A DNA stretch of 64,000 nucleotides from NCBI GenBank assembly GCA_038501625.1, contig JAZAYU010000015.1, forward strand, positions 5,292,991-5,356,990, written 5' to 3'. The translations under genes were made by a program, and so were the position numbers. The notes below the pieces were generated by a model, which did not search any database, had not been told where the DNA came from, and was given only the letters and a program-made list of their open reading frames with translations. Source of the DNA: Corbicula japonica (lineage: Eukaryota; Mollusca; Bivalvia; Venerida; Cyrenidae). Positions 6,690-62,813 of the stretch are shown in pieces; positions within the stretch are counted from its first letter, which is position 1; the number at the start of each line of letters is the position of its first letter.

Positions 6690-8515
6690 CTAGATGTTTT
6701 TTGTGAAAAACGCATGTCTCCCCCCTGTGCCCCCCCCCCCCTGCGCCCAGACCCCTGTGACCTTGACCTTTGACCTACTGATCCCATAATCAATAGGGTT
6801 CATCTACTCAATAAGGGCTATTACCCTATTTAGTTTGAATGCTCTGGGTCAAGCGGTACTCCAGTAATTGACCAGATACGGTTTTTACTCTTCGGGGCCC
6901 CTGTGACCTTGACCTCTGACCTACTGACCCCAAAATCAACAGAAGTCCTCTACTCAATAAGGACATCCATCGTATGGTTTGAATGGTCTGGGTAAAATAG
7001 AACTCCTATTATTGAGTGGAAACGGTTTTCACTCTTCAGGCCCCTTTGACCTTGACCTTTGACCTACTGACCCCAAAATCAATAGGGTTCTTCTTATCAA
7101 AAAGGGCTATCACCCTATGCGTTTTGAAGGCTTTGGGTCAAACGGTACTCCAGTTATTGAGCGGAAACGGTTTTCACTCTTCAGGCACCTGTGAATTTGA
7201 CCTTTGACCTACTGACCCCAAAATCAATAGGGTTCTTCTACTCCATAATGGCTATCAACCTATGAAGTTTGAAGTCCCTGGGTCAAAGGGTACTCAAGTT
7301 ATGGAGCAGAAACGGTTTTCACTCTTCGGGCCCCTGTGACCTTGACCTTTTACCTACTGACCCCAAAATCAATTGGGTTCTTCTACTCAATAAGGGCTGT
7401 CATCCTATGAAGTTTGAAGGATCTGGGCCAAACAGTACTCGAATTATTAAGCGGAAACGGTTTTCACTCTTCGGGCCCCTGTGACCTTGACCTTTGACCT
7501 ACAAACCCCAAAATCAGTAGGGTTCTCCTACTCAATAAGGGCTATCACCCTTTGAAGTTTGAAGGCTCTGGGTCAAAGGGTACTCAAATTATTGAGCGGA
7601 AACGGTTTTCACTCTTCGGGTCACTGTGACCTTGACCTTTGAGCTACTGACCCCAAAATCAATAGGGTTCTTCTACTCTATAAGGGCTGTCATCCTATGA
7701 AGTTTGAAGTCTCTGGGTCAAAGGGTACTCGAGTTAATGAGCCGAAACGGTTTTCACTCTTCGGGTCACTGTGACCTTGACCTTTGACCTATTGACCCCA
7801 AAATCAATAGGGTTTTTCTACTCAATAAGGGCTATCACCCTATGAAGTTTGAAGGCTCTGGGTCAAAAGGTACTCGAGTTATTGAGCGGAAACGGTTTTT
7901 ACTCTTCGGGTCACTGTGACCTTGACCTTTGAGCTACTGACCCCAAAATCAATAGGGTTTTCTACTCAATAAGGGCTATCACCCTATGAAGTTTGGAGGC
8001 TCCAGGTCAAAGGGTACTCGAGTTATTGAGCGGAAACAGTTTTCACTCTTCGGGTCACTGTGACCTTGACCTTTGACCTACTGACCCCAAAATCATAAGG
8101 GTTCTTCTACTCAATAACGGCTATCATCCTATGAAGTTTGAAGGCTCTGGGTCAAAGGGTACGGGAGTTATTGAGCGGAAACGGTTTTCACTCTTCGGGT
8201 CACTGTGACCTTGACCTTTGACCTACTGACCCCAAAATCAATAGGGTTCTTCTACTCAATAAGGGCTATCACCCTATGAAGTTTGAAGGCTCTGGGTCAA
8301 AGGGTACTCGAGTTATTGAGCGGAAACGGTTTTCACTCTTCGGGTCACTGTGACCTTGACCTTTGACCTACTGACCCCAAAATCAATAGGGTTCTTCTAC
8401 TCAATAAGGGCTATCACTCTATGAAGTTTGAAGGCTCTGGGTCAAAGGGTGACAGACAGACAGGGCAAAAACAATATGTCTCCCCAGAGGGGGGGGGGGG
8501 GGGGGAGGTGACATA
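6690..8515 (+). mobile_element. HP-N element, complete, with 12-unit 144-bp array
   Basis: It starts CTAGAT. The 5' hairpin is GTTTTT-TGTG-AAAAAC, followed by the inverted word ATGTCTCCCC. The core (about 6760-8450) has twelve 144-bp units with GTGACCTTGACCTTTGACCT, CCCCAAAATCAATAGGG, AGGGCTATCACCCTATGAAG and CGGAAACGGTTTTCACTC. Then come GACAGACAGACAGGG and a 3' hairpin arm pair ATGTCTCCCC / GGAGGTGACAT whose loop has become a 17-G run (8489-8505). Open frames inside are repeat translation. Confidence 0.85.
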
Positions 8516-8689
8516 ATCATTGTCTACATAGTTTACCTAAGTGGTCTAGGCCATAAGGATGTCATAATAGGACTTTTCTCAACCACTGGTTCCAATTCAA
8601 TGTATGATAAATTTTTTTAAGATAAATTTTATAAATAATGTTTCATTTATTATATTATTTCAAATAGATGACTTTTTCTTTAGGGGATG

Positions 8690-9046
8690 CATTTGGACCA
8701 GGGATAAATGTACATTTTGGCCCATGATTGCTCTATGGAAGCCTTGGAAGCAGATATTTTTGCTGATGATACAACTCTTACAGCATCAGGACTCTGTGCA
8801 CAAGAGTTAAATTATAAACTCCAAACCGACCTTGAAAATGTCAGCCTATGGTGTAAACAAAATGCAATGTTACTAAATGCTCAGAAAACAAAAGCAATGT
8901 ACCTGACATCTAACAATACACAACCACCACTTAAACCAATACACCTACAAGAACAGGAAATTGCATTTTCTGAAAGTGAAAAGTTACTAGGCGTTTTTGT
9001 TGACAATAAACTGAAGTGGCAAACTCAAATAGAAAAGACAATTAAA
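8690..9046 (+). pseudogene. Non-LTR retrotransposon reverse transcriptase, 5' part
   Basis: The frame from 8708 contains FADDTTL (8759-8779), the reverse transcriptase catalytic box in its non-LTR form. It is followed by WCKQNAMLLNAQKT and LLGVFVDNKLKWQTQIEK, the usual thumb-side motifs of Jockey/CR1-like elements. Upstream, GCATTTGGACC at 8687-8700 is a damaged remnant of the preceding QGCILGP-type motif with a stop in frame. The frame is cut at codon AAA 9044-9046 by HP-A and resumes at 10931. The copy is 5'-truncated and dead. Confidence 0.85.
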
Positions 9047-10928
9047 CAAGAGCTGTCAGAGGAGACAGCATGCTCGACTATTCGAAACATTTGAAACAAA
9101 TGCAATTTGAAGATTAAAACAATAATAACTATGGCCATACATTCATGTGCAATCAGGAAAAATATTAACAAGTGAATGGTACGGGAGAAATTCTTTTCAA
9201 ATAACAGAAATAATTCCTAAATGTACCATAAGTATTAAACTGAATAGGGGAATAACTATGAAATATTTCTGAATTTGTTAGAAAACTTGTTAGTAATTTT
9301 TTATTAGAGACATTTACTTTTAGTCAAATATCAATCACTTCAGTAATGTAACAGAAAAAGAACTGAAATGAAAATATAATGGTAGTTTGAAGTTGATACC
9401 TTAAGTATTTGCAAAGTTATCGATGAAGTGCACTTAAGTGAAAATATAAGTGAAACTATAAATGTGTCTATGGGACACGGATGCCCCACTATGCATCATT
9501 TTAAGACACTCAAGTGCAATGATGGGAATAATACGCGATACACTGCCCTTTCATGGTGAACATTTGTGTCAAGTTTTTTTGAAATCCCTCCATTTATAAT
9601 GAAGTTACAGCCTGGACAAGAAAATTCTATTTTTAGTAACAGTGACCTTGACCTTGGACCTTCAGGCTTGGGTATTGTGCGGACACACTGCCTTTTCATG
9701 AACATTTGTGCAAAGTTATTTTGAAATCCCTCCATTTATAACAAAGTAACAGCCTGGACAAGATAATTCTATTTTTAGTAACAGTGACCTTGACCTTTGA
9801 CCTACAGGCATGGGCATGGTACGTGACACACCGCCCTGTCATGGTGAACATTTGTGTCAAGTTATTTTGAAATCCTTCCATTCATAACAAAGTTACAGCC
9901 TGGACAAGAAAATTCTATTTTTAGTAACAGTGACCTTGACCTTGGATCTACAGGCATGGGTATTGTGCGGACACACCGCCTTGTCATGGTGAACATTTGT
10001 GCCAAGATATTTTGAAATCCCTCCATTCATAACAAAGTAACAGCCTAGACAAGAAAATTCTATTTTTAGTAACAGTGACCTTGACCATTGACCTACAGGC
10101 TTGGGCATGTACGTGACACACCGTCTTGATATGGTGAACAATTATACCAAGTTATTTAAAAACCCAATAAGAAATAACAAAGTTACAGAGCGGACACGAT
10201 TTTGCAAGAAAATTCTATTTTTAGTAACAGTGACCTTGACCTTGGACCTACAGGCATGGGTATTGTACGCGACACACCGCCTTGTCATGGTGAACATTTG
10301 TGCCAAGTTATTTTGAAATCCCTCCATTCATAACAAAGTTAAGGGCCGACTGTATATTTTGCTTAACACAAAATGTAAGCGAAAAAGGGGCATAATTTGA
10401 AAAATATTGGAAGAAGGGTTATGGGTCTTGTTGGTTATAATGTAGATTTTGATGGTGTAAATATATTTCAAGTTTCAAGGCAATATCTCAAGTAGTTTTA
10501 AAGTTAGGGGCAAAATGCATATTTTGCTTGACTCAAAATATAAGAAAAAAGGGGCATAACTTGAAATATATTGACAGCAGAGTTATGGGTCTTGTTGGTA
10601 ATGATGTAGAATTTGATGGTGAATATATATTCCAAGTTTCAAGTTGATATCTCAAGTAGTTTACAAGTTATGGACCAAAGTGCATATTTTCCTTAACGCA
10701 AAATTTAAACGAAAAAGGGGCATAACTTGAAAAATATTTGTAGCAGAGTTATGGGTGTTGTTGGTAATGATGTAGAATTTGATGGTGAATATATATTCCA
10801 AGTTTCAAGTTGATATCATAAGTAGTTTTCAAGTAATGGACCAAAGTGCATTTTTTGTTTAACGGACGCCGACGCCGACACCGGGGCGAGTAGGATAGCT
10901 CCCCTATTCTTCGAATAGTCGAGCTAAA
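9047..10928 (+). mobile_element. HP-A element, copy 1, inserted in the LINE
   Basis: It starts CAAGAG. The 5' hairpin is GCTGTC-AGAGGA-GACAGC, then the inverted word CTCGACTATTCGAA. At the 3' end GGACGCCGACGCCGACACC precedes the hairpin CTATTC-TTC-GAATAG and GTCGAGCTAAAAA. The interior holds an HP-D-like start (9456), six M-type units (9530-10330) and three units with AAAGGGGCATAACTTG (10370-10850). It is nearly identical throughout to 44014-45895. Removing it restores the LINE frame. Confidence 0.9.
9456..10330 (+). repeat. HP-D 5' end and M-type tandem array inside HP-A
   Basis: The HP-D start (CTATAAATGTGTCTATGGGA) is followed by M units: TGAACATTTGTGCCAAG, TTATTTTGAAATCCCTCC, ATAACAAAGTTACAGCC, AGAAAATTCTATTTTTAG, TAACAGTGACCTTGACCTT and CTACAGGCATGGGTATTG. 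Each is about 145 bp. There is no HP-D 3' end. The same arrangement is in the copy at 44423-45300, so it predates the HP-A duplication. Confidence 0.8.
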
Positions 10929-10930
10929 AA

Positions 10931-12803: not shown

Positions 12804-13059
12804 CTAGAATTATCACTGAAAGTGATTAAATACCCCCACATGTCTGCTTGATACTTGAACTGGGAATGCTTCGAATCAATGGCATAATGTGCCCCACCTT
12901 CAATCCAAAGTGTCATCTTCACAGTAGCCACATATACAGCAAGTTTCATCACAATATCTCATTCCTTCTAAATTCATTGAGCATAAATGGTTTGAATATG
13001 TTAGAAACAGTGACCTTTACTTAACTTTTATCAAACAACTGTGCCAAAAATTGTGTATA

Positions 13060-15700
13060 CTGTAAAACGCATTAATTTCGCGAGGTCAAAATTTCGCGAT
13101 TTTTGTCAAAAAATCGGCTATTTTCTTTATTCGCGTGTTTATGAATTCGCGACGTCGTCTGCCTCAAAAAAGCGGAAGTCGTAAACTGAAACCGGAAACG
13201 GTGAACGAAATATTTGCTATTATGCAAAATCGAAAGTACAGGTACAGCTTAAACAGTTACAACTCCGCATATTAAGGGATTAGCGCAACAATAAACTACC
13301 CAGTTGGAATATGTTGATAATTGCTTTGAACAAATAATTTGAGATCTTACTGAATAAATTTGCAAGTTGATATGTGTTCACTGTTATACATTTTACTCCC
13401 AGTAATCCGAGTTTTTACAGTTGTTTTTCAAACTAGTAAACATATACATGTAGTGCATATTTCATGTCGACATTATAACAATGACTACGCAAAGTATCAC
13501 GTCGTTTTTTAAAAGAACAAGACATGAGTCTGGTGGTTTACCAGAGCCATCCAGTCCAGCAGAGGCTATAATAACTAAAGAAGTTGAGAACGCTACGCCA
13601 GAATCCTCCAGAAAACGGAAACGCGGGACTTACAGTGATTATTCACCAGAAACGAGGGCTAAAATTGCTAGATATGCAATTGAAAACGGGAACACCATGG
13701 CTGCTCGTCATTTTAGCTTTGTGCTTAACAAAAACGTAAATGAAAGTACAGTAAGAAGTATTAAACAATCGTATGGGAAACGACAACGTTTGGAAGATTC
13801 TTTTCTGCAATTACTAGCAATGAACTACCAAAGTCACCGCGGGGAAGACCGTTAAAACTTGGATGTTACGATGAACAAGTAAAGGACTATTTACAAAAAC
13901 TTCGCATTTCCGGTGGTGTTGTAAATTCCAGAATAGTTCTTGCAGCTGCTAAGGGAGTTATCAAGTCAAAGGATAAAACTTTGTTTAAAGAAAATGGCGG
14001 AACTGTAGTAATAGAAAAAACTTGGGCCTATTCCTTAAAGAAACGTATGGGCCTTACAAAACGGAAGGGGACAAAAGGAGTGAAACACTTACCAGATGAT
14101 TTTGAAAATATTCAGAAGGCATTCTTAGACAGAATAAACGACAATGTGCGCTCTTACAAGATTCCCGACGAACTTTGTATTAACTGGGATCAAACAGGCT
14201 CGAATTATGTGCCTGTCAGCTCATGGACTATGCATGATAAGGGATCAAAACAGGTAAGGGTAAAACTGTAATAATCAGGCACTCATATTTACATCGAAAT
14301 TCAAAATTTTGCTTGTTAGTTACGATGTCAAATCATTAATTTATATCTCTTGAAACGTGTGATCTTAATTCACTTTACGCAAACGTTTTTTCAATTCTTC
14401 AACAAAACTCAGCTGTGTTTTTCATTTAAATGACAACTGATTTTAACTGTGTATCGCCTCGATGCATATTAGGCCCGTAAGCATGTACGTAAAAAAAATA
14501 CGAAAAAAAATCATCATGTTTGTATTTCAGGTACCAATCGCGCAAATTGACGATAAAAGGCAGATGACTGTCTTAATGGCATGCACAAAATCTGGAAAAC
14601 TTCTTCCCCCGCAGTTACTATACCAAGGAAAAACAGAAGCTTGTCATGCAGATTTCAACTTCCCAAAGGAATGGGACGTTTGGCACACAGATACACACTG
14701 GTCTAATGCAAAATCAATGGAAAGGTTCGTTACCTTTTTAATTTAAAGTATAATTTATTACAGTGATAACGATTTAATAAACTCGTTAACTGTACAGGTA
14801 TTTTCCATTGTCCTTACTGAGCTTCAGGGCATTTAACTATCCATAAACATATTACTTGTATTGTTATTCAAACGGTTTTTTGTTAAGGTGCGAAATATAA
14901 CAAACAGTGATGACAATAGGCTATTTTGTTTCCTGTTTCAGGTTCGTGAATAACATCATTGTGCCGTATGTTGAACATGTACGCGAAGAATTGGATCTCC
15001 CCATTAGGCAACGAGCACTTTGTATATTTGACATATACAAGGCACATCAGGGAGAAGAAATTCGCAGTATTCTTCAAAAGCATAATATTCAAATGGTCTA
15101 CATACCCGCCAGCTGCACTGACAGACTTCAACCTTTAGATCTCAGTGTAAACGGCGCTTTCAAACAATACATGAAATCAAGTTTTGAAGACTGGTATGCC
15201 GATGAAGTTGCTAATCAGCTTCAGAAGTGTGAGATTTCTGATGTTAACGTCGACATGCGATTGTCAACCGTTAAGCCCCTTCATGCTATGTGGTTGGTAA
15301 AGAGCATGCAAAAACTTGAAAATGAGACTGAACTAATTCAGCGCGGTTGGATTCAGGCGGGAATTAAATGTGACTGAAATAATATCGAAATGCTGTGTAA
15401 TTGTGTTTTGTGTTACTGTAAATAATATAAAGTTTATAAAATACAAGACATTATAATTTAAACTACCGATAGTTTGCGTTAATAAAAAGGGAATTAACTC
15501 TTAAAGTTCTCTGCTTTCCTTTAACAGTGATCTCCCTTGATGAGTATCCGCATACGTATTGAGATGCTTATTTTCGGATAAACTTATTTTCGGATATATG
15601 GAAAATCATCATTTATTCGCGGAATTTATGAATTCGCGAGGTAAGCGATTCGCGAATATTAGCGAAAATAAAACTAACGCGAATAAAACCAGTTTTACAT
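13060..15700 (+). mobile_element. pogo/Tigger-type DNA transposon
   Basis: Left end CTGTAAAAC and right end GTTTTACAT form the outer inverted repeat, with TA at 13058-59 and 15701-02. AATTTCGCGAGG, ATTCGCGTG and GAATTCGCGA words recur inverted near the right end (15610-15680). The interior holds the spliced transposase gene. TA duplication and the DDE_1-type protein place it in the IS630-Tc1-mariner group, pogo/Tigger branch. Confidence 0.88.
13481..15377 (+). CDS. pogo/Tigger-type transposase, spliced, one frame break
   Basis: Cuts and rejoins the element at TA sites. Exon 1 starts ATG 13481. Residues 1-12 include TQSITSFFKR, close to a PCNA-binding (PIP) box. Residues about 44-102 (RKRGTYSDYSPETRAKIARY onward) are a helix-turn-helix. 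The frame changes by one base between about 13790 and 13822; the new frame gives ELPKSPRGRPLKLG and runs to a donor at 14254. The next exons are 14531-14724 and 14942-15377. Joins at 14253/14531 (phase 0) and 14724/14942 (inside an Arg codon) are in frame. Catalytic Asp residues: NWDQTG (14188), IFDIYKAH (15030), LQPLD (15138), with 35 residues between the last two. Stop 15375; AATAAA at 15481. The frame break, if not a sequencing error or a missed intron, disables it. Confidence 0.88.
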
Positions 15701-16474
15701 TATATGTGATAGCTGAAAAGGGAACTTTGAAGACCCTCGACCACGACAAATATGAAAATATTGCAGGCTCGGTTTCATTGAGCCTGTTCATGGGCAGTAA
15801 TGGAAATGCTTATTACTGCCCACGCCGCATAGCCCAGGGTTGAGCGCAATTCAATATTTACACCAATAAACAGTACAATTTTGATCCATCCCAAACGATG
15901 GTATGCATATGGCGTGTGAAACTTTACATGAGAAATCATCCAGAAACCATTTTTTCTATTTTTTGTAACAGTGAACAGTGACCTTGACTCCATCAGGCCC
16001 AATTTCAATACCAAGTTTCGTCTTCACAGACACTACCTATATAGCAATTTTTATCACAATATCTCATTCCGAACCAAAGTTATTGAGCATATATAGTTTT
16101 TTTTCTATTTTTAGTAACAGTGACCTTGACCCCATAGGCCTTACTTTGAATCCCAAATCATCTTCACAAAAACCACCAATACACCAAATTTCATTTAAGA
16201 ATCTCATTCCAAGCTATAGTTACTGAGTGGAAATGAAGTTTTGAAGTTTATATAACAGTGACCTTGACCTTGAACCCACAGGCCCCAAAGTCAAACCTAA
16301 CCTGTATCTTGTTATGTTACATCTGTGTCCCAAAAAATAATTTAATCTATGAAGTATTTCATGAGTAATCGTCAAGAAAATGTTTTTCTATTTTAAGTAA
16401 CAGTGACCTTGACATTGACCCCACAGGCCCCAAGTCGAACGCGACCTGTATCTTCTGTTACATCTATTAACCAA

Positions 16475-17007
16475 ACTAGACAGGTGTTCAGTTGAACACT
16501 TGTGTCGCCCTCTGGTATAATGTCGGAAGAAAAATGCAAGTACAGAAAGGGGCATAACTCCATCTTGACAGAAACAACTTGTCATCATCAATAGTGTGTT
16601 GTCTTGAGCAATTATTATTTGAGAAGTTGATGAAGAAATATTGAGAAATGGCAAAGTTATAGCCAACATTAAGTTTTGGTGTCAAAATCCAAGTACAAAA
16701 AGGTCCAAAACTCCATCAAATGTGACCTTGACCTAAAGAATTTGGCATCATCATGAGTGTGTTGTCATAAGCAATTTAATTTGAAAGTGTTTCATGAAGA
16801 AATATTGAGAAATGGCAAAGTTATAGCCAATGTTAAGTTTTCGTGTCAAAATACAAGTACAAAAAAGGGGCATAACTCAACCAAATGTGACCTTGACCTA
16901 AAGAATTTGGCATCATCATGAGCGTGTTGTCATAAGCAATATAATTTGAAAGTTTCATGAAGAAATATTGAGAAATGGCAAAGTTTTAGCTAATGTTAAG
17001 TTTTCGT

Positions 17008-17039
<32 letters not shown>

Positions 17040-17335
17040 GACAAAGCGATCCCTATGTATCGCCATTTCTTCGAAAGGGCGACAAGTCGTGTCAAAATAC
17101 AAGTACAAAAAAAGGGGCATAACTCAACCAAATGTGACCTTGACCTAAAGTATTTGGCATCATCATGAGTGTGTTGTCATAAGCAATAAAATTTGAAAGT
17201 TTCATGAAGAAATATTGAGAAATGGCAAAGTTATAGCCAACGTTAAGTTTTCGTGACAGACAGACGGACGGACGGACAGACGGACAGACAGACGGACAAA
17301 GGGATCCCTATGTATCGCCATTTTTTCGAAAGGGA
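16475..17335 (+). mobile_element. HP-I element with a duplicated 3' end block
   Basis: It starts CTAGA. The hairpin is GTGTTCA-GT-TGAACAC, then TGTGTCGCCCT. Four units of about 175 bp carry GGGGCATAACTCAACC, TGTGACCTTGACCTAAAG, TTTGGCATCATCATGAG and GAAATATTGAGAAATGGC. The 3' block (GACAGACAGACGGACGGACG, then CGCCATTTCTTCGAAAGGGC) occurs twice, at 17008-17086 and 17256-17335. The second lacks the final GACACAAAA. It sits in an HP-J unit between CCAAA and ATTTAATCTG. Confidence 0.8.
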
Positions 17336-17736
17336 TTTAATCTGTGAAGTGTTTCATGAGTTATCATCCGGAAACCATTTTTCTATTTTTAGTAATACTG
17401 ACCTTGACACTGACCCCACCAGCCCCAAATTCGAACTTGACCTGTATCTTGTGATGTTACACCCTGTGTACCAAAAAATTTTAAAATAGTTGATACATTT
17501 CAGGAGTTATCGTCCGGAAATTTTTCTATTTTTAGTAACAGTGACCTTGACACTGACCCCACCAGCCCCAAAATCGAACTTGACCTGTACCTTATGACGA
17601 TATACCTGTGTACCAAAAATTATTAAATTCTGTCAAGCCTTTCATGAGTTATCATCTGGAAATGAATAATCCGACCGACCGACCGACCGACAAGCTCACT
17701 CCTATATACCCCCTCAAACTTCTTTTGTGGGGGTAT

Positions 17737-18825
17737 AATTATTTTTTTACAATCAATTTTGTTGTCCATATGTTTATCAACACCGGACAATCTAAAAAAA
17801 ACAACACAACAGCACTTTATAACAATGAAACTTTTGACGCCTGAAGACCAGAAAAGTGGCGTTAAAATGCTCTTTTTACATTTGTTATTTAAAAATACTG
17901 ATTTTGTTCGTAAATGCAAAAGAAATACTTCATTTTTGCATATTTTATCATAATAAGAAACAATATGAATGAAATTATTTTCTAGATTGATAAGTAAACG
18001 TTGCTTATGTTGAACGTTGATGTTACTCTCATACGTCATTAAATATTTACGTAAAAGAACGTAAACAGGAAAATATTATCATAACATTTGTTTGATAAGT
18101 GCCTACTTATCAATTATCTAAAATTAAAATTAATATAAGTTAACTAAACTTCATAATCGACTTATTCAAACATGACGTTAATTTGGTCAGAAATATTTAA
18201 AAAAAACGTGTACGAATTACTGGTCAAAATTAATAAATTGTGTTCTCTTTGAAAGGCAGTTACATAGCTACACAATGTAATGCAAAGTATCACTTCATCC
18301 GAAATTTCTATTCAGAAACTTTTTGCATACAACAGTGCGAGAAAAATGGAATTTTCTCCTTCAAATGTACGTAAAAATGTTATGGATAAAATAGAGAAGA
18401 ATGTGTTGGCTCATACAAGTTTAAATTGCAATCAAAAAGTCAAAGGTGTTAATCGCAGTCCGTTCTGTATTTGAGAAGAAACGATGCTCACGGAAAAAGA
18501 GCCCAGTTCGTGCAAGTTTTGCTGATCTTGGAATAGTTTCCATCATCAAAAGTTGTTTTACTTAAAAAAGCTTCATGTCTTTCTGAAACATCTTTATAAA
18601 ATTACCAATAATATAGCATTATATTGTTATTTCCATTGATTTTATTTTTTGTGTTCATAAATATTTCTAATTGATATTAATTATAAATGTTAGGATCTGA
18701 GGAATTTAAGCCATTTTAATAGAATCAGCTTTTGTGTTTCAGTTTTGAAAAGCATAAGATTTTGTGGTATAAGAACACAAGACATCTAGTTAATCCCCGA
18801 CTTTTGAATCTTGGTTATAAATCTG
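17737..18825. other. Unassigned AT-rich DNA with a possible broken reading frame
   Basis: No repeat family recognised. A frame from ATG 18280 (64 codons, MQSITSSEISIQKLF onward) stops at 18474. A second frame overlapping its end continues SVFEKKRCSRKKSPVRAS to a stop near 18562. The start ATGCAAAGTATCAC resembles the pogo transposase start (ACGCAAAGTATCAC at 13488), so it could be a decayed relative. I do not claim a function. Confidence 0.3.
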
Positions 18826-20784: not shown

Positions 20785-22509
20785 CAAGAGGGCCATGATG
20801 GCCCTATATCGCTCACCTGACTACAAAAGTACTCTCAGCTTGTGGTTTCAGACAAGAAGATTTTTAAAGTTTTTCCTATACAAGTCTATGCAAAATGAAG
20901 TGACCCCTGGGGCGGGGCCAATTTTGACCCCAGGGAAATTTGAGCAATCTTTGAAAAGTTCCAATAGAGGATGCTAAATGCCAAATATCTAAGCTCTAGG
21001 CTTTGTGGTTTCAGACAAGAAGATTTTTAAAGTTTTTCCTATATAAGTCTATGCAAAATGAAGTGACCCCTGGGTCGGGGCCAATTTTGACCCCAGGGAA
21101 ATAATTTGAACAATCTTTGTAGAGTTCCACTAGAGGATGCTAAATGCCAAATATCTAAGCTCTAGGCCTTGAGGTTTCAGACAAGAAGATTTTTAAAGTT
21201 TTTCCTATACAAGTCTATATAAAACTAGAGCTATCACTGAAGGTGATTAATACCCCTGTAATACTGCTTTGTCAGAGTATACAGAAATGATGTTTGCATC
21301 TTTCATGGGTGAAAGTTGAAAAATAATTGAAATCCTGAAAAATTGCTGCAAAAGATGTGTTCAAAAATAGCAACTTGGGTTTTCACCGGATGTAAACAAA
21401 ACTGTAAAAGTAGTTGACGTCAGAAGGTTTTGTTGAATCGTGCTCCCCTTCTAAAAAATAATGGACTGATCCAAATGAAAAAAAATATGTCATGCAAATC
21501 TAATCACGAGAGTATGTTAAAAGTTTGAAAACTGGAGAAGTAATTTGTGTCATAAGATTTTGATAAATAATGCTCCCCTCAAACCAAAAATGGACTGATC
21601 CATAAGAAATATGTCACTAACATGCGCACTTCATACAGAACATATGATTTCAGTCGATATTTTGAAAACTGTAGAAGTTTGCATAACACGATTTTGTTAA
21701 ATCATGTCCCCTGCAAAAAATAATGGACTGATCCACACGAAAAATATGTCACGCACATCTACACTTCATGCCGAACATATGTATCAAGTTTCAAGTCAAT
21801 ATCATAAAAACTGTAGAAGTAGTTCGCGTCACAAGATTTTGTTAAATCGTGCTCCCCTCCGAAAAATAATGGACTGATCTACATGAGAGAAAAAAAATTG
21901 CGCAAATGTACCAAGAACATATGTTTAAAGTTTCAAGTCGATATCTTGAAAACTGTTGACGTAGTAAGTGTAGAAGTTTGCATAACACGATTTTGTTAAA
22001 TCATGTCCCCTGCAAAAAATAATGGACTGATCCACACGAAAAATATGTCATGCACAACTACACTTCATGCCGAACACATGTATCAAGTTTCAAGTCAATA
22101 TCTTAAAAACTGTAGACGTAGTTTTTGTTACAAGATTTTGTTGAATCATGCTCCCTTCCAAAAATAATGGACTGATCCACATGAGAAAAAAAAATTTGCG
22201 CAAATGTACTCACCAACATATGTGTAAAGTTTCAAGTCGATATCTTGACAAGAGCCAGTCGGAAACGACTGCACGCTCGACTATTCGAAAAGTCAGAATT
22301 ATTAAGCACATTGTAACTGGGCTTCATTTAAACTGGGGAGTGATTCAGGAGTTTATGACACCCCCAACAAACACACATGAACAAAAGTTTCTTAATCCAT
22401 AAATCAATAAATAACACTTAATTTATTCTTGTAGATTTTTTTTAGGGTTTACACAACCCAGCCCATAAACCCCTGATCCCACACCCATCAACCCACTATC
22501 TTTGCCCAC

Positions 22510-23635
22510 CTATAGTTGTGTTGTGTGGTGAAGTACAGTATGGTATGCTGGTTGCTGTTGTTGGTGGTGGTGTTGTTGTTGGTGGTGGTGGTGTTGTTGC
22601 TGTTGTTGGTGTTGTTGTTGGTGGTGGTGTTGTTGGTGTTGGCATTGTTAGTGTTGTTGGTGGTGGTGGTGGTAGTGTTGTTGCTGGTGGTGGTGGTGGT
22701 GTTGGTTGTTGTTGCTGTTGGTGGTGGTGTTGATGTTGTTGTTGGTGGTGGTGTTGATGTTGTTGGTGTTGTTGTTGGTGGTGGTGTTGGTGTTGCTGGT
22801 GGTGGTGGTGTTGTTGTCGGTGTTGTTGTTGTTGGTAGTGGTGTTGTTGTTGGTGGTGGTGTTGTTGGTGGTGGTGATGATGTTGTTGTTGGTGGTGGTG
22901 GTGTTGTTGTTGGTGGTGTTGGTGTTGTTGGTGGTGGTGTTGGTGGTGGTGTTGTTGTTGATGGTGTTGTTGTTGGTGGTGTTGTTGGTGGTGGTGGTGG
23001 TGGTGTTGTTGATGTTGGTGGTGGTGGTGTTGGTGTTATTGGTGGTGGTGTTGTTGGAGGTGGTGTTGTTGTTGGTGGTGTTGTTGGTGGTGGTGATGGT
23101 GTTGTTGTTAGTGGTGGTGTTGTTGTTGGTGGTGGTGGTGTTGTTGTTTGTGTTGTTGTTGGTGGTGGTATTGATATTGTTGTTGGTGTTGTTGTTGGTG
23201 GTGGTGTTGGTGTTGTTGTTGGTGGTGGTGGTGGTGTTGGTGTTGTTGTTGTTAATGGTGGTGCTGTAGTTGTTGTTGGTGGTGGAGATGTTGGTGCTGT
23301 TAATGGTGGTGGTGTTGTTGGTGGTGGTGGTGGTGTTGTTGGTGGTGGTGATGGTGTTGTTGTTGGTGGTGGTGTTGTTGTTGTTAGTGGTGGTGGTGTT
23401 GTTGGTGGTGGTGTTGTTGTTGTTGGTGTTGTTGTTGGTGGTGGTGGTGTTGTTTGTGTTTGTGTTGTTGTAGTTGTTGTTGTTGGTGGTGGTGGTATGT
23501 GGAGGTGGTGGTGGGTGGTGGGGGTACAGTACAGTAGTGTGGTGTGGTGTGGTGTGGTGTGGTGTGGTGTGGTGTGGTGTGGTGTGGTGTGGTGTGGTGT
23601 AGTGTAGTGTAGTGTAGTATAGTATAGTCTATGCA
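22510..23635. repeat. GGT/GTT microsatellite, 1.1 kb, with pentanucleotide flank
   Basis: From about 22545 to 23500 the plus strand is almost only G and T in irregular GGT, GTT and GAT triplets. 23535-23595 is (GGTGT)n, followed by (AGTGT)n and (AGTAT)n to 23627. The minus strand therefore has a 387-codon Pro/Thr/Asn-rich open frame and the plus strand a 363-codon Val/Gly frame. Both are products of composition, not genes. Confidence 0.95.
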
Positions 23636-23699
23636 CCCACCCACCCCACAATTACTCAACACTTTCAACCAAAGTATGTTAAGGACATCTGTTTTAAAC

Positions 23700-30690: not shown

Positions 30691-30693
30691 TTC

Positions 30694-38215: not shown

Positions 38216-38262
38216 ACAACTGACCAGTAAGCAATAGAAATGCTTGCAGATCTAGATATTAA

Positions 38263-38505: not shown

Positions 38506-38914
38506 TTAAACAAAGAGAGTAGACACTGATGCAGAGTAAAAAGTGTAAAATTTGAAAAAGGATATGGGATAATGACTGATTTAGTTGTCATTTTGGACGT
38601 CAGGACTGAAAATTTTAATTTATACTTTAAAACTCATATAACATTTACTTTATGCATGCATACTTATTATTTATGTGATTCAGATACGAGCATTTTGCTT
38701 CATTTGACACTATAAAATGTAAAAGAGTACCAGCAAAAAGCCTGTAAATACAACTGCGTTATTTTTGCATGGTACATTTCTTTAGATTTCGAGTATGTGT
38801 TCCAGCAAAACCATCGTTTCTCAACATACTGCGTTATTGCACAAGCAATTTCTTTAAAATTATTACAAACCGTAAGAGCAAAAACAATTTTTACTTATAT
38901 CTTTAAAAATACTA

Positions 38915-43489: not shown

Positions 43490-43689
43490 CAAGAGCTGTC
43501 ACTTGAAATTGACATATGCCCCCGAAAAGCAGCTTTGAAATCGAATGGGTATACATATGTAATAAATAAACATCTGTTATGAAAAATATGCTTGTGGAAG
43601 ACAAAGCATACTGCATGCATATAATGTGAAAGATGAAAGGATCATATGTTTTAAGGTAAGACCTGTGTAATGAATACCTATATCCAGAA

Positions 43690-44013: not shown

Positions 44014-45895
44014 CAAGAGCTGTCAGAGGAGACAGCATGCTCGACTATTCGAATCATTTGAAACAAATGCAATTTGAAGATTAAAACAATAACAACTATG
44101 GCCATACATTCATGTGCAATCAGGAAAAATATTTACAAGTGAATGGTACGGGAGAAATTCTTTTCAAATAACAGAAATAATTCCTAAATGTACCATAAAT
44201 ATTAAACTGAATAGGGGAATAACTATGAAATATTTCTGAATTTGTTAGAAAACTTGTTAGTAATTTTTTATTAGAGACATTTACTTTTAGTCAAATATCA
44301 ATCACTTCAGTAATGTTACAGAAAAAGAACTGAAATGAAAATATAATGGTAGTTTGAAGTTGATACCTTAAGTATTTGCAAAGTTATCGATGAAGTGCAC
44401 TTAAGTGAAAATATAAGTGAAACTAGAAATGTGTCCATAGGACACGGATGCCCCGCTATGCATCATTTTCAGACACTCAAGTGCAATGATGGGAAATATA
44501 CGCGATACACTGCCCTTTCATGGTGAACATTTGTGTCAAGTTTTTTTGAAATCCCTCCATTTATAATGAAGTTACAGCCTGGACAAGAAAATTCTATTTT
44601 TGGTAACAGTGACCTTGACCTTGGACCTTCAGGCTTGGGTATTGTGCGGACACACTGCCTTTTCATAAACATTTGTGCAAAGTTATTTTAAAATCCCTCC
44701 ATTTATAACAAAGTAACAGCCAGGACAAGATAATTCTATTTTTAGTAACAGTGACCTTGACCTTTGACCTACAGGCATGGGCATGGTACGTGACACACTG
44801 CCCTGTCATGGTGAACATTTGTGTCAAATTATTTTGAAATCCTTCCATTCATAACAAAGTTACAGCCTGGACAAGAAAATTCTATTTTTAGTAACAGTGA
44901 CCTTGACCTTGGATCTACAGGCATGGGTATTGTGCGGACACACCGCCTTGTCATGGTGAACATTTGTGCCAAGATATTTTGAAATCCCTCCATTTATAAC
45001 AAAGTAACAGCCTAGACAAGAAAATTCTATTTTTAGCAACAGTGACCTTGACCATTGACATACAGGCTTGGGCATGTACGTGACACACCGTCTTGATATG
45101 GTGAACAATTATACCAAGTTATTTAAAAACCCAATAAGAAATAACAAAGTTACAGAGCGGACACGATTTTGCAAGAAAATTCTATTTTTACTAACAGTGA
45201 CCTTGACTTTGGACCTACAGGCATGGGTATTGTACGCGACACACCGCCTTGTCATGGTGAACATTTGTGCCAAGTTATTTTGAAATCCCTCCATTCATAA
45301 CGAAGTTAAGGGCCGACTGTATATTTTGCTTAACACAAAATGTAAGCGAAAAAGGGGCATAATTTGAAAAATATTGGAAGAAGGGTTATGGGTCTTGTTG
45401 GTTATGATGTAGATTTTGATGGTGAAAATATATTTCAAGTTTCAAGGCAATATCTCAAGTAGTTTTAAAGTTAGAGGCAAAATGCATATTTTGCTTGACA
45501 CAAAATATAAGAAAAAAGGGGCATAACTTGAAATATATTGACAGCAGAGTTATGGGTCTTGTTGGTAATGATGTAGAATTTGATGGTGAATATATATTCC
45601 AAGTTTCAAGTTGATATCTCAAGTAGTTTATAAGTTATGGACCAAAGTGCATATTTTCCTTAACGCAAAATTTAAGTGAAAAAGGGGCATAACTTGAAAA
45701 ATATTGGAAGCAGAGTTATGGGTCTTGTTGGTAATGATGTAGAATTTGATGGTGAATATATATTCCAAGTTTCGAGTTGATATCATAAGTAGTTTTCAAG
45801 TAATGGACCAAACTGTATTTTTTGTTTAACGGACGCCGACGCCGACACCGGGGCGAGTAGGATAGCTCCCCTATTCTTCGAATAGTCGAGCTAAA
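44014..45895 (+). mobile_element. HP-A element, copy 2
   Basis: The start CAAGAGC, hairpin GCTGTC-AGAGGA-GACAGC, inverted word CTCGACTATTCGAA and 3' CTATTC-TTC-GAATAG with GTCGAGCTAAAAA match copy 1 (9047-10928). Differences are scattered single bases. The M array and HP-D start (44423) are inside. Element E at 50025-50055 shows the site without the insertion. Confidence 0.92.
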
Positions 45896-49087: not shown

Positions 49088-49688
49088 CTAGAAATGTGTC
49101 CATAGGACACGGATGCCCCCGCTATTCATGTTTGTCATGGTGAACATTTATACCAAGTTATTTGAAAATCCAATAAGTAATAACAAACTCACAGCCCAGA
49201 CAAGAAAATTCTGGTTTTAGTAATAGTGACCTTGACCTTGGACCTACAGGCATGGGAATTGTACACAACACAACGCCTTGTCATAGTGAACATTTGTGCC
49301 AGATTATTTTGAAATCACTCTGTTAATAACGAAGTTATATCCAGTACAAGAAATTTCTATTTTTCGTAACAGTGACCTTGACCTTGGACCTACAGGCATG
49401 GGTATTGTACACAACACATCGTCTTGATATAATGAACATTTATACCAAGTTATTTGAAAATCCAATAAGAAATAACAAAGTAACAGAGCAGACAAGATTT
49501 TTATAACAAAATTCTATTTTTAGTAACAGTGACCTTGACCTTTGACCTTAAGGCATGGGTGTTGTACATGACACACCGCCGTATCATGGTGAACATTTGT
49601 GCCAAGTTATTTTGAAATCCCTCCATTCATAAGGAAGTTACAGCCTGGACAAGAAAATTCTATTTTTAGTACAGTACATTCCACTTAA

Positions 49689-50467
49689 GGTAAGGCCTTC
49701 CTAATGAATACCTATATCCAGAAGAGTATCCAAGGGAGGTAACTTTAGTAGTATTAGGGTAGATTTCTGTCATGCAAGAGGACCAGGGTTCAAATCCCAC
49801 TGGAAGCTATTTTTTTTGTAAGCCTAGAGCTTAAATAATTGGCATATTTCTTTTTTTCCTGTGTAATTCTGTCATTGAATATAAAATTCTCATGATTTAA
49901 ACTAAAATAAGCAAAATTATCAAGATTAAAGGGGTTTTCGCTATCAGAATAGTGTTTATTCAAGTCATCAATTTGAAAATTTCTAAAACTGGACAGTAAA
50001 CTTCTCTGAATTTTTTTTTAAATTTTGTTTAAGGTATATAGTTAAAAAATGGTAAATTTTTGTATATTGCACCAATCAGGATTTTGCACAATTTTCATTA
50101 ATTTAGTCTCGTGAAATATAAAAAAAGGCATTTTTTAAATTTATTTGGTCAAAAAATGTCATTTTAAGATAAATTCTGTATTTATATATTATATCTTAAA
50201 TTGGTTTAGTAAAATATAACATATTTTGGATAAACTGTAAAAAATTAGGGTTGAATTTATCAATAACAAAAAAATTGTGTCACCGATTAAAGAATATGGA
50301 TACTTTCATGTTTTTTCTCACTTTTTTAAATAAAAAAAGCTAAAAATCTCAAAAACTGCACGGTGAAAATCATTAAAATTTTGCATACAAGTCAGTGTTA
50401 TGAAGCAGTTGATGAAAATATAATCAGATGTTGGATTCTCTATAGTGCCAGTTAGGCAGGCCTTACC
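49689..50467 (+). mobile_element. TTAA element E, copy 2, complete
   Basis: TTAA flanks at 49685-88 and 50468-71. The ends are GGTAAGGCCT and AGGCCTTACC. It sits within the left TIR of element P. The body of 779 bp has no open frame of note and includes a tRNA-Asp-like segment. It is uninterrupted at the place where copy 1 carries HP-A. Confidence 0.9.
49718..49806 (+). tRNA. tRNA-Asp-like segment in element E, copy 2
   Basis: It has the same words as copy 1: TTTAGTAGTATTAGGGTAGA, TTCTGTCATGCAAGAGGACC and AGGGTTCAAATCCCACTGG. The B-box-like GGTTCAAATCC is intact; stems are imperfect. Probably a SINE head or tRNA fragment captured by element E. Confidence 0.4.
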
Positions 50468-52207
50468 TTAATTGAATGCCGCTTATTTGAATATTTCGCT
50501 TAATATAGTAGAATATTAAAACACAAAACCATTTATATCTATTTCTATGATAAATAATCTCTTTATTTGAATAGGTAACCGCATGCATTTCGCTTATTAA
50601 GATAGCAATTTCCCAGCTTAAAAAGACTTACGACGCTAATCCTACTTGAATTTCACACGTTTCTGCCCCAAGGCAATGTGCATTATCGGTAACCTCGATA
50701 AATCTGTCATTGTTCATCACCTGTGTTACATAATGACTTCCGTTCACAGGCACGCATAATTGTGTTTACAGTATACATTTATAGCAATGACGTCACAAAA
50801 CGGGTTTCCCCGCATTGAGAATTTTCATTTGTTTACGTTCATAAGATGATCACGTTTTCAGGAAACCGGGAAATTCCCGGCTAAAAATAGATTAATCTTA
50901 ATACGAAAGAAACAGAAAAATATCAAATAACAAATAAACTTTGCCATACTTGCACGATAATTTGAATGTTATTTAGATCATTCAAACGAATCTTTATTTA
51001 GGATGGGTTTTAAAATATCGTATACGCAACGTTTTGGCGCCCCAAGTGAGATAATAACTCTTCAAAGAAAAGATAGTGGTATAGTAATCGGATAAAGATC
51101 GTGAATTTCGGATACGAAAAGTTACGAAATAAAATGAGTCGACTATGTCGGCAAAACGAAAATTTTTTGAAACGGCGCAGTCGAAAGAATCAAACGTATA
51201 CACAGCGCATTTACATAGTTTTTGTTATCTTCAAACCGGATTTTATTAAACATGATGACAGAATATATTTCTGAGCGCATTACCCCACCCACCACTGACG
51301 AAACTGAGAATTTGTAAGCTCCGTTTTTTATGATACTCCGCTTAATTGAATCTAGAATCCTGACAAAAAGACTATTCAAATAAGCGGATTCTACTGTAAC
51401 AGCGACCTTGACCTTTGACCTACAGGCATGGGTATTGTACGCGACACACCGTCTTGATATTGTGAACATTTATACCGAGTTCTAGTCCAATACGAAATAA
51501 CAAAGTTACAGACCGGACACGATTTTTCCAACAAAATTCTATTTTTAGTAACAGTGACCTTGACCTTGGACCTACAGGCATGGGTGTTGTACGCGACACA
51601 CCAGCTTGTCATGGTGAACATTTGTGCCAAGTTATCTTGAAATCCCTCCATTCATAAGGAAGTTACAGCCCGGACAAGAAAATTCTATTTTTAGTAACAG
51701 TGACCTTGACCTTGGACCTACAGGCATGGGTATTGTACGCAACACACTGTCTTGATATGGTGAACATTCATACCAAGTTATTTTAAAATCCAATAAGAAA
51801 TAACAAAGTTACAGAGCGGACACTATTTTTCCAACAAAATTCTTTTTTTAGTAACAGTGACCTTGACCTTGGATCTACAGGCATGGGTGTTGTATGTGAC
51901 ACACCGCCATGTCATGGTGAACATTTGTGCCAAGTTATTTTGAAATCCCTCCATTCATAAGGAAGTTACAGCCCGGACAAGAAAATTCTATTTTTAGTAA
52001 CAGTGACCTTGACCTTGGACCTACAGGCATGGGTATTGTACGCGACACACCGTCTTGATATGATGAACATTCATACCAAGTTATTTTAAAATCCAATAAG
52101 AAATAACAAAGTTACAGAGCGGACACGATTTTCGAACATACACACTGACACACACACAAACACACAGCCAGGGTGAGCACTATATGCCCTTCCGCCAGCG
52201 GGGGCAT

Positions 52208-52333
52208 AAAAAGCCTGATTTTCAAAGTGCTATAAAGGAAGAAAGTTTATTCGTCACTATCCATAAAATGACAAAATTTACCCTATAAAATCTTCCAGAG
52301 CAAAGTTCTTAATATTGCATAACACAGATATAA
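52208..52333 (+). repeat. S block, right half of the split copy
   Basis: AAAAGCCTGATTTTCAAAGT to TTAATATTGCATAACACAG matches 34950-35075. After GATATAAGGCC the match is lost. Confidence 0.85.
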
Positions 52334-54209: not shown

Positions 54210-54213
54210 TTAA

Positions 54214-58644: not shown

Positions 58645-58652
58645 GCATACAG

Positions 58653-59531: not shown

Positions 59532-61089
59532 CTAGAAATGTGTCCATAGGACACGGATGCCCCCGCTATGCATCGTTTCCAGATACTAAAGTGCAATGAT
59601 GGGAATAATAGCATTTCAAAGACAGTTATGTTCGAGTAATTATAAGAATATGCATAAACTTGATGATCAAGTAAATTATTTGTATTTGTGGCACTGTTTT
59701 CTTCTTATTTCGGAAATGTTTGTGAAGAAGTTGGTGGTAATGCAATGCAATGTCATAGTGAACATTTGTGCCAAGTTATTTTGAAATCCCTTCATTCATA
59801 AAGAAGTTATAGCCCGAACAAGAAAATTCAAGTTTTAGTTACTGTGACCTTGACCTTGGACTTACAGGCATGGGTAATGTATGCAACACACCGCCTTGTC
59901 ATGGTGAACATTTGTGCCAAGTTATTTTGACAAGGAAATTCTATTTTTGGTAACAGTGACCTTGACCTTGGACCTACAGGTACACAACTCACCACCTTGT
60001 CATGGTGAACATTTCTGGCAAGTCATTTTGAAATTACTATATTCCCAATGTAGTTACAACCCTGACAAGAAAATTCTATTTTAGTAACAGTGACCTTGAC
60101 CTTGGACCTAGGCATGGGCATGGTACGGGACACACCATCTTGTCATGATGAACATTTGTGTCAAGTTATTTTGAAATCAATCTATTCCTAACAAAGTTAC
60201 AGCCCGGACAAGAGAATTCTATTTTTAGTAACAGTGACCTTGACCTACATGCATGGGCATGGTACGCGATACACCGCCCTGTCATGGTGAACATTTGTGT
60301 CAAGTTATTTTGAAATCCCTCCATTTATAATGAAGTTACAGCCTGGACAAGAAAATTCTATTTTTAGTAACAGTGACCTTGACCTTGGACCTTCAGGCTT
60401 GGGTATTGTGCAGACACACTGCCTTGTCATAGTGAACATTTGTGCAAAGTTATTTTGAAATCCCTCCATTCATAACAAAGTAACAGCCCGGACAAGAGAA
60501 TTCAATTTTAAGTAACACTGACCTTGACCTTTGACCTACAGGCATGGGCATGGTACGTGACACATCGCCCTGTCATGGTGAACATTTGTGCCAAGTTATT
60601 TTGAAATCCCTCTATTCATAACAAAGTAACAGCCCGGACAAGAAAATTCTATTTTTAGTAACAGTGACCTTAACCTTCGACCTAAAGGCTTGGGCATGTA
60701 TGAGACATACCGTCTTGATATGGTGAACAATTATACCAAGTTATTTTAAAATCCAATAAGAAATAACAAAGTTACAGAGCAGACAAGATTTTGCAAGAAA
60801 ATTCTATTTTTTAGTAACAGTGACCTTGACCTTGGACCTACAGTCACGACACACCGCCTTGTTATGGTGAACATTTGTGCCAAGTTATTTTGAAATCCCT
60901 CCGTTCCAAACAAAGTTAAGGGCAAAGTGTATATTTTTCTTAACACAAAATGTAAGTGAAAAAGGGGCATAATTTGAAAATATTGGAATGATGGTTATGA
61001 TGTAGATTTTGATGGTGAAAATATATTTCAAGTTTCAAGGCAGTATCTCAAGTAGTTTTTAAGTTATGGGCAAAATGCACAAAATATAA

Positions 61090-62560
61090 GAAACAAGATA
61101 TATTCCTATTAAAACTAATGTAAATGGAAGTATCAAAGGGCAATAACTTCTGAACAGAACATGTAAGAGCAAAACCCCACCTTTTTGCATAACAACATAT
61201 CAGGCCAAGCATTGTGGTAAAGTTTCATCAAATTCCCAGCAGAGGTGTAGGAGGAGCTGCGTTCACAAGATATATTCCTATTAAAACTAATGTAAATGGA
61301 ATTATCAAAGGGCCATAACTTCTGAATGGAACATGTAAGAGCAAAACCCCACCTTTATGCACAACAACATATCAGGCCAAGCATTGTGGTCAAGTTTCAT
61401 TAAATTCCCACCAGTATTGTAGGAGGAGTTGCGTTCACGAGATAAACTCCTATTAAAACTAATGTAAATGGAAGTATCAAAGGGCAATAACTTCTGAACG
61501 GAACATGTAAGAGCGAAACCCCACCTTCATGCACAACTACATATCAGGCCATGCATTGTGGTAAAGTTTCATCAAATTCCCAGCAGAGGTGTAGGAGGAG
61601 TTGCGTTCACAAGATATATTCCTATTAAAACTAATGTAAATGGAATTATCAAAGGGCCATAACTTCTGAACGGAACATGTAATAGCAAAACCCCACCTTT
61701 ATGCACAACAACATATCAGGCCAAGCATTGTGGTCAAGTTTCATTAAATTCCCACCAGTAGTGTAGGAGGAGTTGCGTTTACGAGATATACCGTATAGCG
61801 GGTTATTTCTGCGGTCAAAAATTTCTGCGTTTTGCCCTCAAAAATGGATGCAAAAATTTCTGCGTTTTTTATTTCTGCGTTTTCGGTTCCCATGAAGGAT
61901 AAATTTTTGCGGTTCAAATTGGGTAAGGTGTCGTAAGAATAACACGACTTTGATATACGCATACTATTTGATTTTCACAGATATTTTATTCATGAGTAAT
62001 ACCTGCTACTCAATTTATTTTATCAAAAAAAAACAACAACAAAGATATTAATCATCGATGAATAACAACTCTCAAACAACTATTCAATTGAATAGAATGT
62101 TTGAGAAATGTTTGAGCAAATGTCGCGTTTATAGTATGCCTATATGATAACAATGTGCGGTAATTGATCGTAATTATTTTACCCTGTCTGTATTATAAAA
62201 ATGGATTATCTCGGACATGGCCACTTCGACGATTTTCGCTTAAAATGAGATAAAATTTTGCGATTTAAATTTCTGCTGGTCTTTTATTTCTGCTGGATAT
62301 ATTTCTGCGATTTCATCCAAAGACCGCAGAAACGCAGAAATTTGACACCCGCAGAAATTACCCCCTATACGGTACTCCTTTTAAAACTAATGTAAATGGA
62401 AGTATCAAAGGGCAATAACTTCTGAACGGAACATGTAAGAGCGAAACCCCACCTTCATGCACAACTACATATCAGGCCAAGCATTGTGGTCAAGTTTCAT
62501 TAAATTCCGACCAGTAGTGTAGGAGGAGTTGCGTTCAGAGAATATCGGACGGACGGAAGG
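61090..62560 (+). repeat. 177-bp tandem array in HP-D copy 3
   Basis: Five units: ATTCCTATTAAAACTAATGT, AAATGGAAGTATCAAAGGGC, ATAACTTCTGAACGGAACAT, GTAAGAGCAAAACCCCACC, CATATCAGGCCAAGCATTG and GTAGGAGGAGTTGCGTTCAC. The fifth unit is separated by the MITE at 61791-62372. Confidence 0.9.
61791..62372. mobile_element. TIR MITE, TA target, inside the 177-bp array
   Basis: The left end CCGTATAGCGGGTTATTTCT and the right end in reverse CCGTATAGGGGGTAATTTCT continue with GCGG and AAATTTCTGCGTTT. TA at 61789-90 and 62373-74. The neighbouring unit reads GAGATAAACTCCTATTAAA without it. The interior is rich in ATTTCTGCG words. No transposase. Confidence 0.92.
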
Positions 62561-62813
62561 ACGGACGGAAGGACGGAAGTCCTGACAAATTGGTACTTAA
62601 GTGGCTTTCCTTCTGTTCTCCCCATTGTTCTTTTTAGCCACATAAACCGAAATAGCCACATAAACCCATTACGGAATGAATGACATCAAAGAAAATGTAC
62701 AGTTACCTATTGTCCCTACAGCCACCTAAGTACCAATTTATCCGGTCGGACGGACGGACGGACAGGAGCAACTCTTAATGCCCGTCGCCATTTCATGGCG
62801 GGGGCATAAAAAA

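What the first reader, a model, noticed from the sequence alone, without database searches (positions are those of the whole stretch)
6690..62808. One terminal design shared by at least seven unrelated-looking repeat families
HP-A, B, C, D, I, J and N share the same order of parts: CTAGA or CAAGAG; a hairpin; an 8-15 base word; tandem units; a GAC-rich, CCAA, GACC or GCCC microsatellite; a 3' hairpin containing the inverted word; A-run. HP-Q fits more weakly. Sequences of the parts differ between families, while positions and pairing are kept. Known precedents are Helentron-derived HINE/DINE-1 elements (subterminal inverted repeats, hairpin, minisatellite core, no target duplication, A/T target) and bivalve 'pearl' elements. 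That a single mobilising machinery recognises this set is my inference; no Rep/helicase gene is here.
Basis: partly seen in the sequence, partly recalled or inferred. Interest (0 to 1): 0.88.

Follow-up and report, generated by a model that had tools for sequence, protein, structure and literature searches.

The report
Helentron-derived repeats and their autonomous partners
The repeat families in this window are short, protein-less passengers of rolling-circle jumping genes (Helentrons), and the same genome holds full-length Helentrons with matching ends for some of them, so the repeats belong to a known class and some look like shortened relatives of gene-bearing elements.

Summary
Twelve elements in 7 word families share one end design. 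For one element per family, pairing each 5' word with its own 3' hairpin is the best of 5040 assignments. Seven elements have an uninterrupted paralogue in the window; five of these show a net gain of exactly two A beyond C..T, and none shows a target duplication. Read on the minus strand this is the anatomy of HINEs, non-autonomous Helentrons already described in oyster as Cg_HINE (PMC7492417).

What is new lies outside the window. The same 1.07-Gb genome has 104 Rep (PF14214) matches. Of 30 loci examined, 14 carry a terminator of this design downstream of the Rep, including types C, D, E and G of the window. Four E-type loci and one G-type locus (10.6-14.3 kb) show both ends, with the family's tandem array between 5' end and Rep-helicase frame. 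E- and G-type Rep-helicases are about 30% identical, and each terminator type seen more than once is its own Rep clade. One machinery for all is therefore not supported: each family probably has its own Helentron. A, B/F and H have no partner yet.

The parts
6690..8516 (-). Element A (strand given throughout = Helentron sense): terminator CTAGATG+hairpin+word ATGTCTCCCC at 6690, 145-bp array 6755-8450, GACA microsatellite, hairpin end GGTGACATAA at 8516
   Evidence: no empty site found
9047..10927 (-). Element B9047 (CAAGAGCTGTC..GCTCGACTATTCG / GTCGAGCTAA); 98% copy of 44014-45894; contains an internal G-like terminator at about 9463
12804..17738 (-). Element C12804 (CTAGAATTATCACTGAAAGTGATTAAATACCCCC / GGGGGTATAA), holding DDE_1 transposase remains and element D
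16476..17085 (-). Element D (CTAGACAGGTGTTCAGTTGAACACTTGTGTCGCCC / GGGCGACAA), in C12804's array; right border blurred by a partial duplication up to about 17334
20785..30888 (-). Element E (CAAGAGGGCCATGATGGCCC..GCTCACCTGA / TCAGGTGAGCTAA), 166-bp array, nested in another array; same type of ends as loci C7, C60, C92, C393
21225..27036 (-). Element C21225 (CTAGAGCTATCACTGAAGGTGATTAATACCCC / GGGGGTATAA), nested in E's array; empty units show net +2 A
22249..25134 (-). Element F (CAAGAGCCAGTCGGAAACGACTG..GCTCGACTATTC / GTCGAGCTAA), nested in C21225's array; empty units show net +2 A
33593..40821 (-). Element G33593 (CTAGAAATGTGTCC..GATGCCCCCGC / GCGGAGGCATAA, one mismatch in the word), holds H33966
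33966..40279 (-). Element H33966 (CAAGAGCTGTCACTTGAAATTGACATATGCCTCC / GGGGGCATAA), nested in a G-type array; net +2 A; itself split by a TIR element 35836-40255
44014..45894 (-). Element B44014; empty site at about 50046-50053; internal G-type terminator at 44423
49088..52209 (-). Element G49088 (CTAGAAATGTGTCCATAGGACACGGATGCCCCCGC / GCGGGGGCATAA); empty site near 34948
59532..62809 (-). Element G59532, composite 145-, 166- and 172-bp units; ends and unit junctions match the Rep-bearing locus C127; empty site near 35335
43490..43650 (-). Isolated H-type terminator end (no partner end of its own found)

Best explanation
The families are HINEs: protein-less derivatives of Helentrons (rolling-circle transposons with a Rep-helicase-endonuclease). 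On the minus strand each runs TT-A-subTIR-loop-inverse, microsatellite, tandem array, second subTIR, terminator hairpin, CTAG or CTTG. Shown here: precise ends, no target duplication where it could be counted, insertion into T-runs (A-runs on +), matched words, Rep-bearing loci in the same genome with the same two ends (E, G) or the same terminator type (C, D), and for E and G the tandem arrays inside the Rep-bearing elements. Inferred: the Rep of the matching Helentron nicks at the 5' TT and peels off one strand; copying ends at the hairpin plus CT[AT]G; the shared word lets that Rep recognise or bring together the two ends; each word family is served mainly by its own Rep lineage.
For: Empty sites, net +2 A at 5 countable sites, no duplication. 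Word pairing by family; hairpins at paralogue-defined ends. Terminators of the design downstream of Rep in 14 of 30 loci examined, out of 104: E type 6, D 2, C 1, G 1, and two types not in the window, 2 each. Copies diverge at or just after the terminator: C149/C247 2 bases (TT) after CTAG, C662/C7 11 bases after CTCTTG. Both ends in C7 (10,677 bp), C92 (10,631), C393 (12,058), C60 (11,060) and C127 (14,349), each with TTT before and TT after. C127 and window G59532: 39 of 40 terminal bases at the terminator, identical over the 60 5' bases printed; unit stretches 71-94% alike, the longest 87% over 951 bases and across the unit junctions. E-type units lie between 5' end and frame in C7, C60, C92, C393. 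Endonuclease-like C-terminus in 8 of 10: three seeds of the profile and five others, two of those partial. Helentron form RGSPH in 14 of 14 terminator-bearing loci. Genome-wide 3975 exact matches to the B/F-type end pattern against 0 for the pattern reversed.
Against: 16 of 30 Rep loci showed no such terminator in the stretch held; 13 of these had only 2.5 kb searched (one, C4, is a copy of C30 cut off inside the terminator). Terminators were accepted by eye from the scan, when a word of a known class followed; other C[AT]AGA+hairpin hits (C11, C24, C31, C48, C90, C189) were left out. A, B/F and H have no partner found. Window E shares only 24-31 of 40 terminal bases with its partners at the terminator, and 160-180 of 201-222 aligned positions at the 5' end; G59532 against C127 aligns at 130 of 215 positions over the first 250 bases by global alignment. 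C127 carries a second 172-bp block that G59532 lacks at that place. Hairpin covariation in 9 E-type terminators (6 distinct) is one both-sided change, reached by 38 of 500 shuffles; the genome-wide count that would settle it did not complete. My automatic both-ends scan of the 10 long loci found no convincing pair; pairs were found by word searches after extending upstream. The Helentron triad fits 11 of 14. No transposition was observed.
Confidence: 0.93

Rival explanations
1. One trans-acting machinery mobilises all families; the word is irrelevant and only the hairpin plus CT[AT]G is recognised.
For: The families share hairpin, CT[AT]G and T-run target.
Against: Different terminator types sit beside Rep-helicases of about 30% identity, and types seen more than once are separate clades; words match within rather than between families, G and H excepted.
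Confidence: 0.07
2. The elements are MITEs or other TIR elements with hairpin-rich ends (PMC7492417 calls pearl a MITE later re-categorised).
For: Inverted words near both ends and high copy number.
Against: Words are subterminal, termini are unlike (TTA at one end, CTAG or CTTG at the other), no target duplication where countable, and the long relatives encode Rep-helicase.
Confidence: 0.02
3. The ends beside Rep-helicase frames are chance neighbours: abundant HINE copies that happen to lie near unrelated Helitron genes.
For: E-type ends are common: extra ones lie in the same loci (for example C92 at 17841, C7 at -526, C94 at 2288).
Against: Terminators lie 177 to 1559 bp past the frame's stop in the right orientation in 7 of 10 long loci; copies of one Rep lineage share the terminator and diverge at or just after it; both ends bracket the frame in 5 loci; the scan finds no second terminator in the 177 bp after C127's stop.
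Confidence: 0.03

Closest known systems
Cg_HINE elements of Crassostrea gigas (PMC7492417; passages and part 1 of 2 of the Discussion read)
   Same: 5' subTIR, complementary IR, microsatellite, satDNA-like repeats of 140-180 bp, 3' subTIR, palindrome, no TSD, TT target, double arrays, and a group of mutually unrelated elements
   Different: There no autonomous element could be related to the Cg_HINEs; here Rep-bearing loci with the same ends are found for the E and G types and terminator-level partners for C and D
Helentron/HINE of mite, Culex and Drosophila, DINE-1 (PMC4067079; passages read)
   Same: subTIRs near the 5' end, palindrome near the 3' end, T-run target, no TSD, Rep-helicase-endonuclease partner, HINEs as deletion derivatives, several families in one genome (7 in the mite)
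   Different: Other phyla; a link between word class and Rep clade was not in the passages I read
Pearl elements CvA/CvE/CvG, DTC84, MgE of bivalves (as described in passages of PMC7492417 and PMC11136912)
   Same: Short central arrays, shared architecture with different sequences

Membership tests
HINE (non-autonomous Helentron) | Matched subterminal inverted repeats, about 11-15 bp | tested here: met
   8 of 12 elements have 11 or more bases with at most one mismatch; A (8), D (9), E (10) and G33593 (10, one mismatch) are shorter
HINE (non-autonomous Helentron) | Palindrome near the 3' end | tested here: met
   hairpin within 6 bases of C[AT]AGA; energy in the lowest 2% in 5 of 7 paralogue-defined elements
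HINE (non-autonomous Helentron) | No target duplication, T-rich target | tested here: met
   5 countable sites, none with a duplication; 2 not countable because of A-runs
HINE (non-autonomous Helentron) | Autonomous Helentron partner with shared ends in the same genome | tested here: met
   met for E and G (both ends) and C, D (terminator only); not found for A, B/F, H in 30 of 104 loci
Helentron (the long partners) | Rep plus PIF1 helicase in one frame | tested here: met
   10 of 10 frames tested; the 20 short loci were not tested for PIF1
Helentron (the long partners) | AP-type endonuclease at the C-terminus | tested here: met
   Pfam Exo_endo_phos in 3 of 10, one below cut-off; own profile made from those three finds 5 more, two partial; none in C11, and C92's frame ends before it. 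For G (C127) and E (C7) it is found
Helentron (the long partners) | Rep motif with S in RGSPH and triad F/Y-w/l/y/k-R | tested here: met
   RGSPH in 14 of 14 terminator-bearing loci; triad in 11 of 14 (not C116, C94, C1359)
Canonical Helitron | Insertion between A and T, L in the Rep motif, no endonuclease | tested here: not met
   defining features from PMC4067079 passages
HINE (non-autonomous Helentron) | Transposition by the partner's Rep | not testable with these tools
   needs an assay

The most novel reading that the evidence does not exclude
The subterminal word is an address: each Helentron Rep lineage recognises its own word class, so bivalve HINE/pearl families can be assigned to their mobilising Rep-helicase from the ends alone, and several deeply diverged Helentron lineages with private words run in parallel in one genome.
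Probability: 0.5. Interest if true: 0.62.

Novelty: new member of a known kind. Interest (0 to 1): 0.5.

Why it matters
HINE-like carriers of satellite repeats are reported from several bivalves, but the oyster study could not link them to any autonomous element. Here full-length candidates with the same ends and the same arrays are named by place, so the source of the repeats, and whether each end family has its own enzyme, become directly testable.

Tried and rejected
Rfam at gathering threshold found nothing in the window. Viral contigs patterns for two families: 0 matches. plasmids and phages with the B element, distant mode: no match. Genome contigs, one pattern: 7 stretches. L002 (Bacteroidetes MAG Glo_2) holds a complete element of the same design; L003 resembles it but the scan did not pick it up; L007 (Bathymodiolus symbiont record) reads by eye like an A-type element, the scan listing only chance pairs there; L006 showed nothing convincing; L001, L004 and L005 were not looked into. 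In the 363,890 bases then held from the genome (window included), end patterns against the same patterns reversed: E 11 to 0, B/F 4 to 0, D 3 to 1, C 4 to 0, and the broad ATG class 15 to 2, six of its listed hits being array units or chance, not ends. A 2x2 genome count of paired and unpaired E-type hairpins was planned and never answered. Alignment A2 held one wrong stretch for C60 and was replaced by A3. Single-machinery and MITE readings were weighed and rejected as above.

Unanswered calls (not completed): 5, 10, 20, 25, 28, 33, 64, 69, 72, 76-79, 81, 84, 87, 89, 92, 95, 98, 100, 102, 105, 107, 109. Searches were waits; 106 printed one stretch and waited.
Full report
WHAT WAS CHECKED. The window is A+T-rich and packed with tandem arrays, many of 140-175-bp units. 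I read the arrays with their flanks and scanned both strands for the described ends. The + strand gives 8 pairs with an inverted word of 9 or more bases, two of them cross-pairs of look-alike words; the - strand none. Twelve elements were then tabulated, in 7 word families: A (ATGTCTCCCC), B/F (GCTCGACTATTCG), C (ATACCCCC), D (GTGTCGCCC), E (GCTCACCTGA), G (ATGCCCCCGC), H (ATGCCTCC). With one element per family the true assignment is the best of 5040; G33593 and H33966 nonetheless pair better with other G or H ends than with their own. Selection by eye inflates this, so the elements with empty sites carry more weight.

ENDS AND TARGET. Joining flanks and searching the window finds an uninterrupted copy for seven elements: B44014 (second copy of the host repeat, about 50046), C21225 (units of E's array), F22249 (units of C21225's array), G49088 (near 34948), H33966 (units of the G array), E20785 and G59532. 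In the first five the filled site carries exactly two more A at the junction than the empty one; in the last two A-runs prevent counting. F22249 and G49088 have only one A on the left, so the two A are not a 2-bp duplication. The nesting of F in C21225 in E in a further array is thus shown step by step. 3' hairpins lie in the lowest 2% of window energies in 7 of 7 and 5' hairpins in 5 of 7; of 28 neighbouring control stretches 5 fall below 5% and 1 below 2%.

ORIENTATION. Read on the minus strand, the elements start TT-A-word-loop-inverse word, then microsatellite and array, then second word, hairpin and CTAG or CTTG. That is the published HINE order: 5' subTIR, IR and microsatellite on the left, tandem repeats, 3' subTIR and palindrome on the right, TT target, no TSD (PMC7492417, passages and part of the Discussion; PMC4067079, passages). 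A group of mutually unrelated HINEs in one genome is also already reported for oyster.

PARTNERS. The window's genome (G000, 1.07 Gb, 1630 contigs) has 104 matches to Helitron_like_N, none in the window. I examined 30: ten with 20 kb each and twenty with the Rep stretch plus 2.5 kb downstream. In 7 of 10 and 7 of 20 a terminator of the design, followed by a word of a known class, lies downstream in the right orientation (accepted by eye). Types: E (C7, C60, C92, C393, C662, C268), G (C127), C (C116), D (C149, C247), and two types absent from the window (C30 and C16; C94 and C1359). With short upstream extensions both ends were seen for five loci: C7, C92, C393, C60 (E type, 10.6-12.1 kb) and C127 (G type, 14.3 kb), each with TTT before and TT after. 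C92's E-type element sits in a C-family array; compared with the unit read in the window its site reads as an insertion without duplication (my reading).

ARRAYS. The 166-bp E units lie between the 5' end and the frame in C7, C60, C92 and C393. In C127 172-, 166- and 145-bp units follow the 5' end in the order seen in G59532, with the junctions in one continuous match, and then a further 172-bp block. So for these two families the arrays are part of the Rep-bearing element, and the window elements look like versions without the gene. Which came first is inference.

PROTEINS. All ten long frames hold PF14214 and PIF1. Pfam sees an endonuclease in three (one below cut-off); a profile made from those three finds it in five more, partial in C60 and C94. 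RGSPH, the published Helentron form of the Rep motif, is present in 14 of 14 terminator-bearing loci, the neighbouring triad in 11. Identity: 93-98% among C7, C60, C92; 62-69% from these to C393; 30-31% between these four and C127; 34-38% among C94, C127, C30. In a tree of the Rep domain every terminator type seen more than once is a clade (support 0.97-1.0), and the AT[AG]C[CT]CCC types group together with weaker support (0.77). Near-identical copies make within-type agreement unsurprising; the between-type pattern rests on six types.

ELSEWHERE. A contig binned with a Bacteroidetes MAG (L002) carries a complete element of the same design, terminator CTAGAG+hairpin and an 11-base word matched at the other end, 1.3 kb. 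I take it for animal DNA in the bin (inference). The B/F-type end pattern occurs 3975 times in the genome, 2042 forward and 1933 reverse, against 0 for the reversed control, so the one-sided orientation in the window is local.

NOVELTY. The kind is known. The link from bivalve HINEs to autonomous Helentrons was reported as unresolved for oyster. My five searches (open-licence library, listings only) and passages of PMC11136912 and PMC10294476 showed no later link, which is weak evidence. The address reading (word class follows Rep clade) is a hypothesis from six types.

LIMITS.

Noticed in passing
window 9463 and 44423: Both B elements contain an internal G-like terminator and match G59532 across the 166/145-bp unit junction, so B looks like a composite of two families.
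   Followed up: partly
window 35836-40255: A 4.4-kb element with imperfect inverted ends CGTCGGGTTA(C/G)AGCAAAAACGCAGTAT splits the 3' end of H33966.
   Followed up: partly
window about 43651-46298 and 49685-50471: Two copies of a repeat with TTAAGGTAAG inverted ends; one holds B44014, the other is its empty site.
   Followed up: partly
window, arrays: TGACCTTGACC occurs 50 times on + and 5 on -, in units of several otherwise different families; it resembles an extended nuclear-receptor half site (recalled).
   Followed up: no
window 13765-15377: Two open frames inside C12804, the second with a DDE_1 match: remains of a transposase (pogo-like is recall).
   Followed up: partly
window 8700-11488: B9047 splits what reads like a LINE frame (recall; Pfam found no family in 10961-11485).
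   Followed up: partly
window 55951-57356: 256-bp tandem units, each with a palindrome of two 20-21-base arms (TATACTCCTGGTTTAGACCCC), 86-90% complementary.
   Followed up: no
window 32429-32622: A cluster of inverted repeats rich in CCATGGT.
   Followed up: no
window about 2270-2720: E-like element on the - strand with a variant end (CAAGAC).
   Followed up: partly
L002, L003, L007: Animal-like DNA with the same element design in contigs of prokaryote genome records.
   Followed up: partly
L016-L035 frames: N-terminal Pfam matches to OTU (C134, C11) and Herpes_teg_N (C7, C60, C92, C393, C24) in the Rep-helicase frames.
   Followed up: no
window 22556-23600: About 1 kb of TGG/TGT-rich simple repeat.
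   Followed up: no
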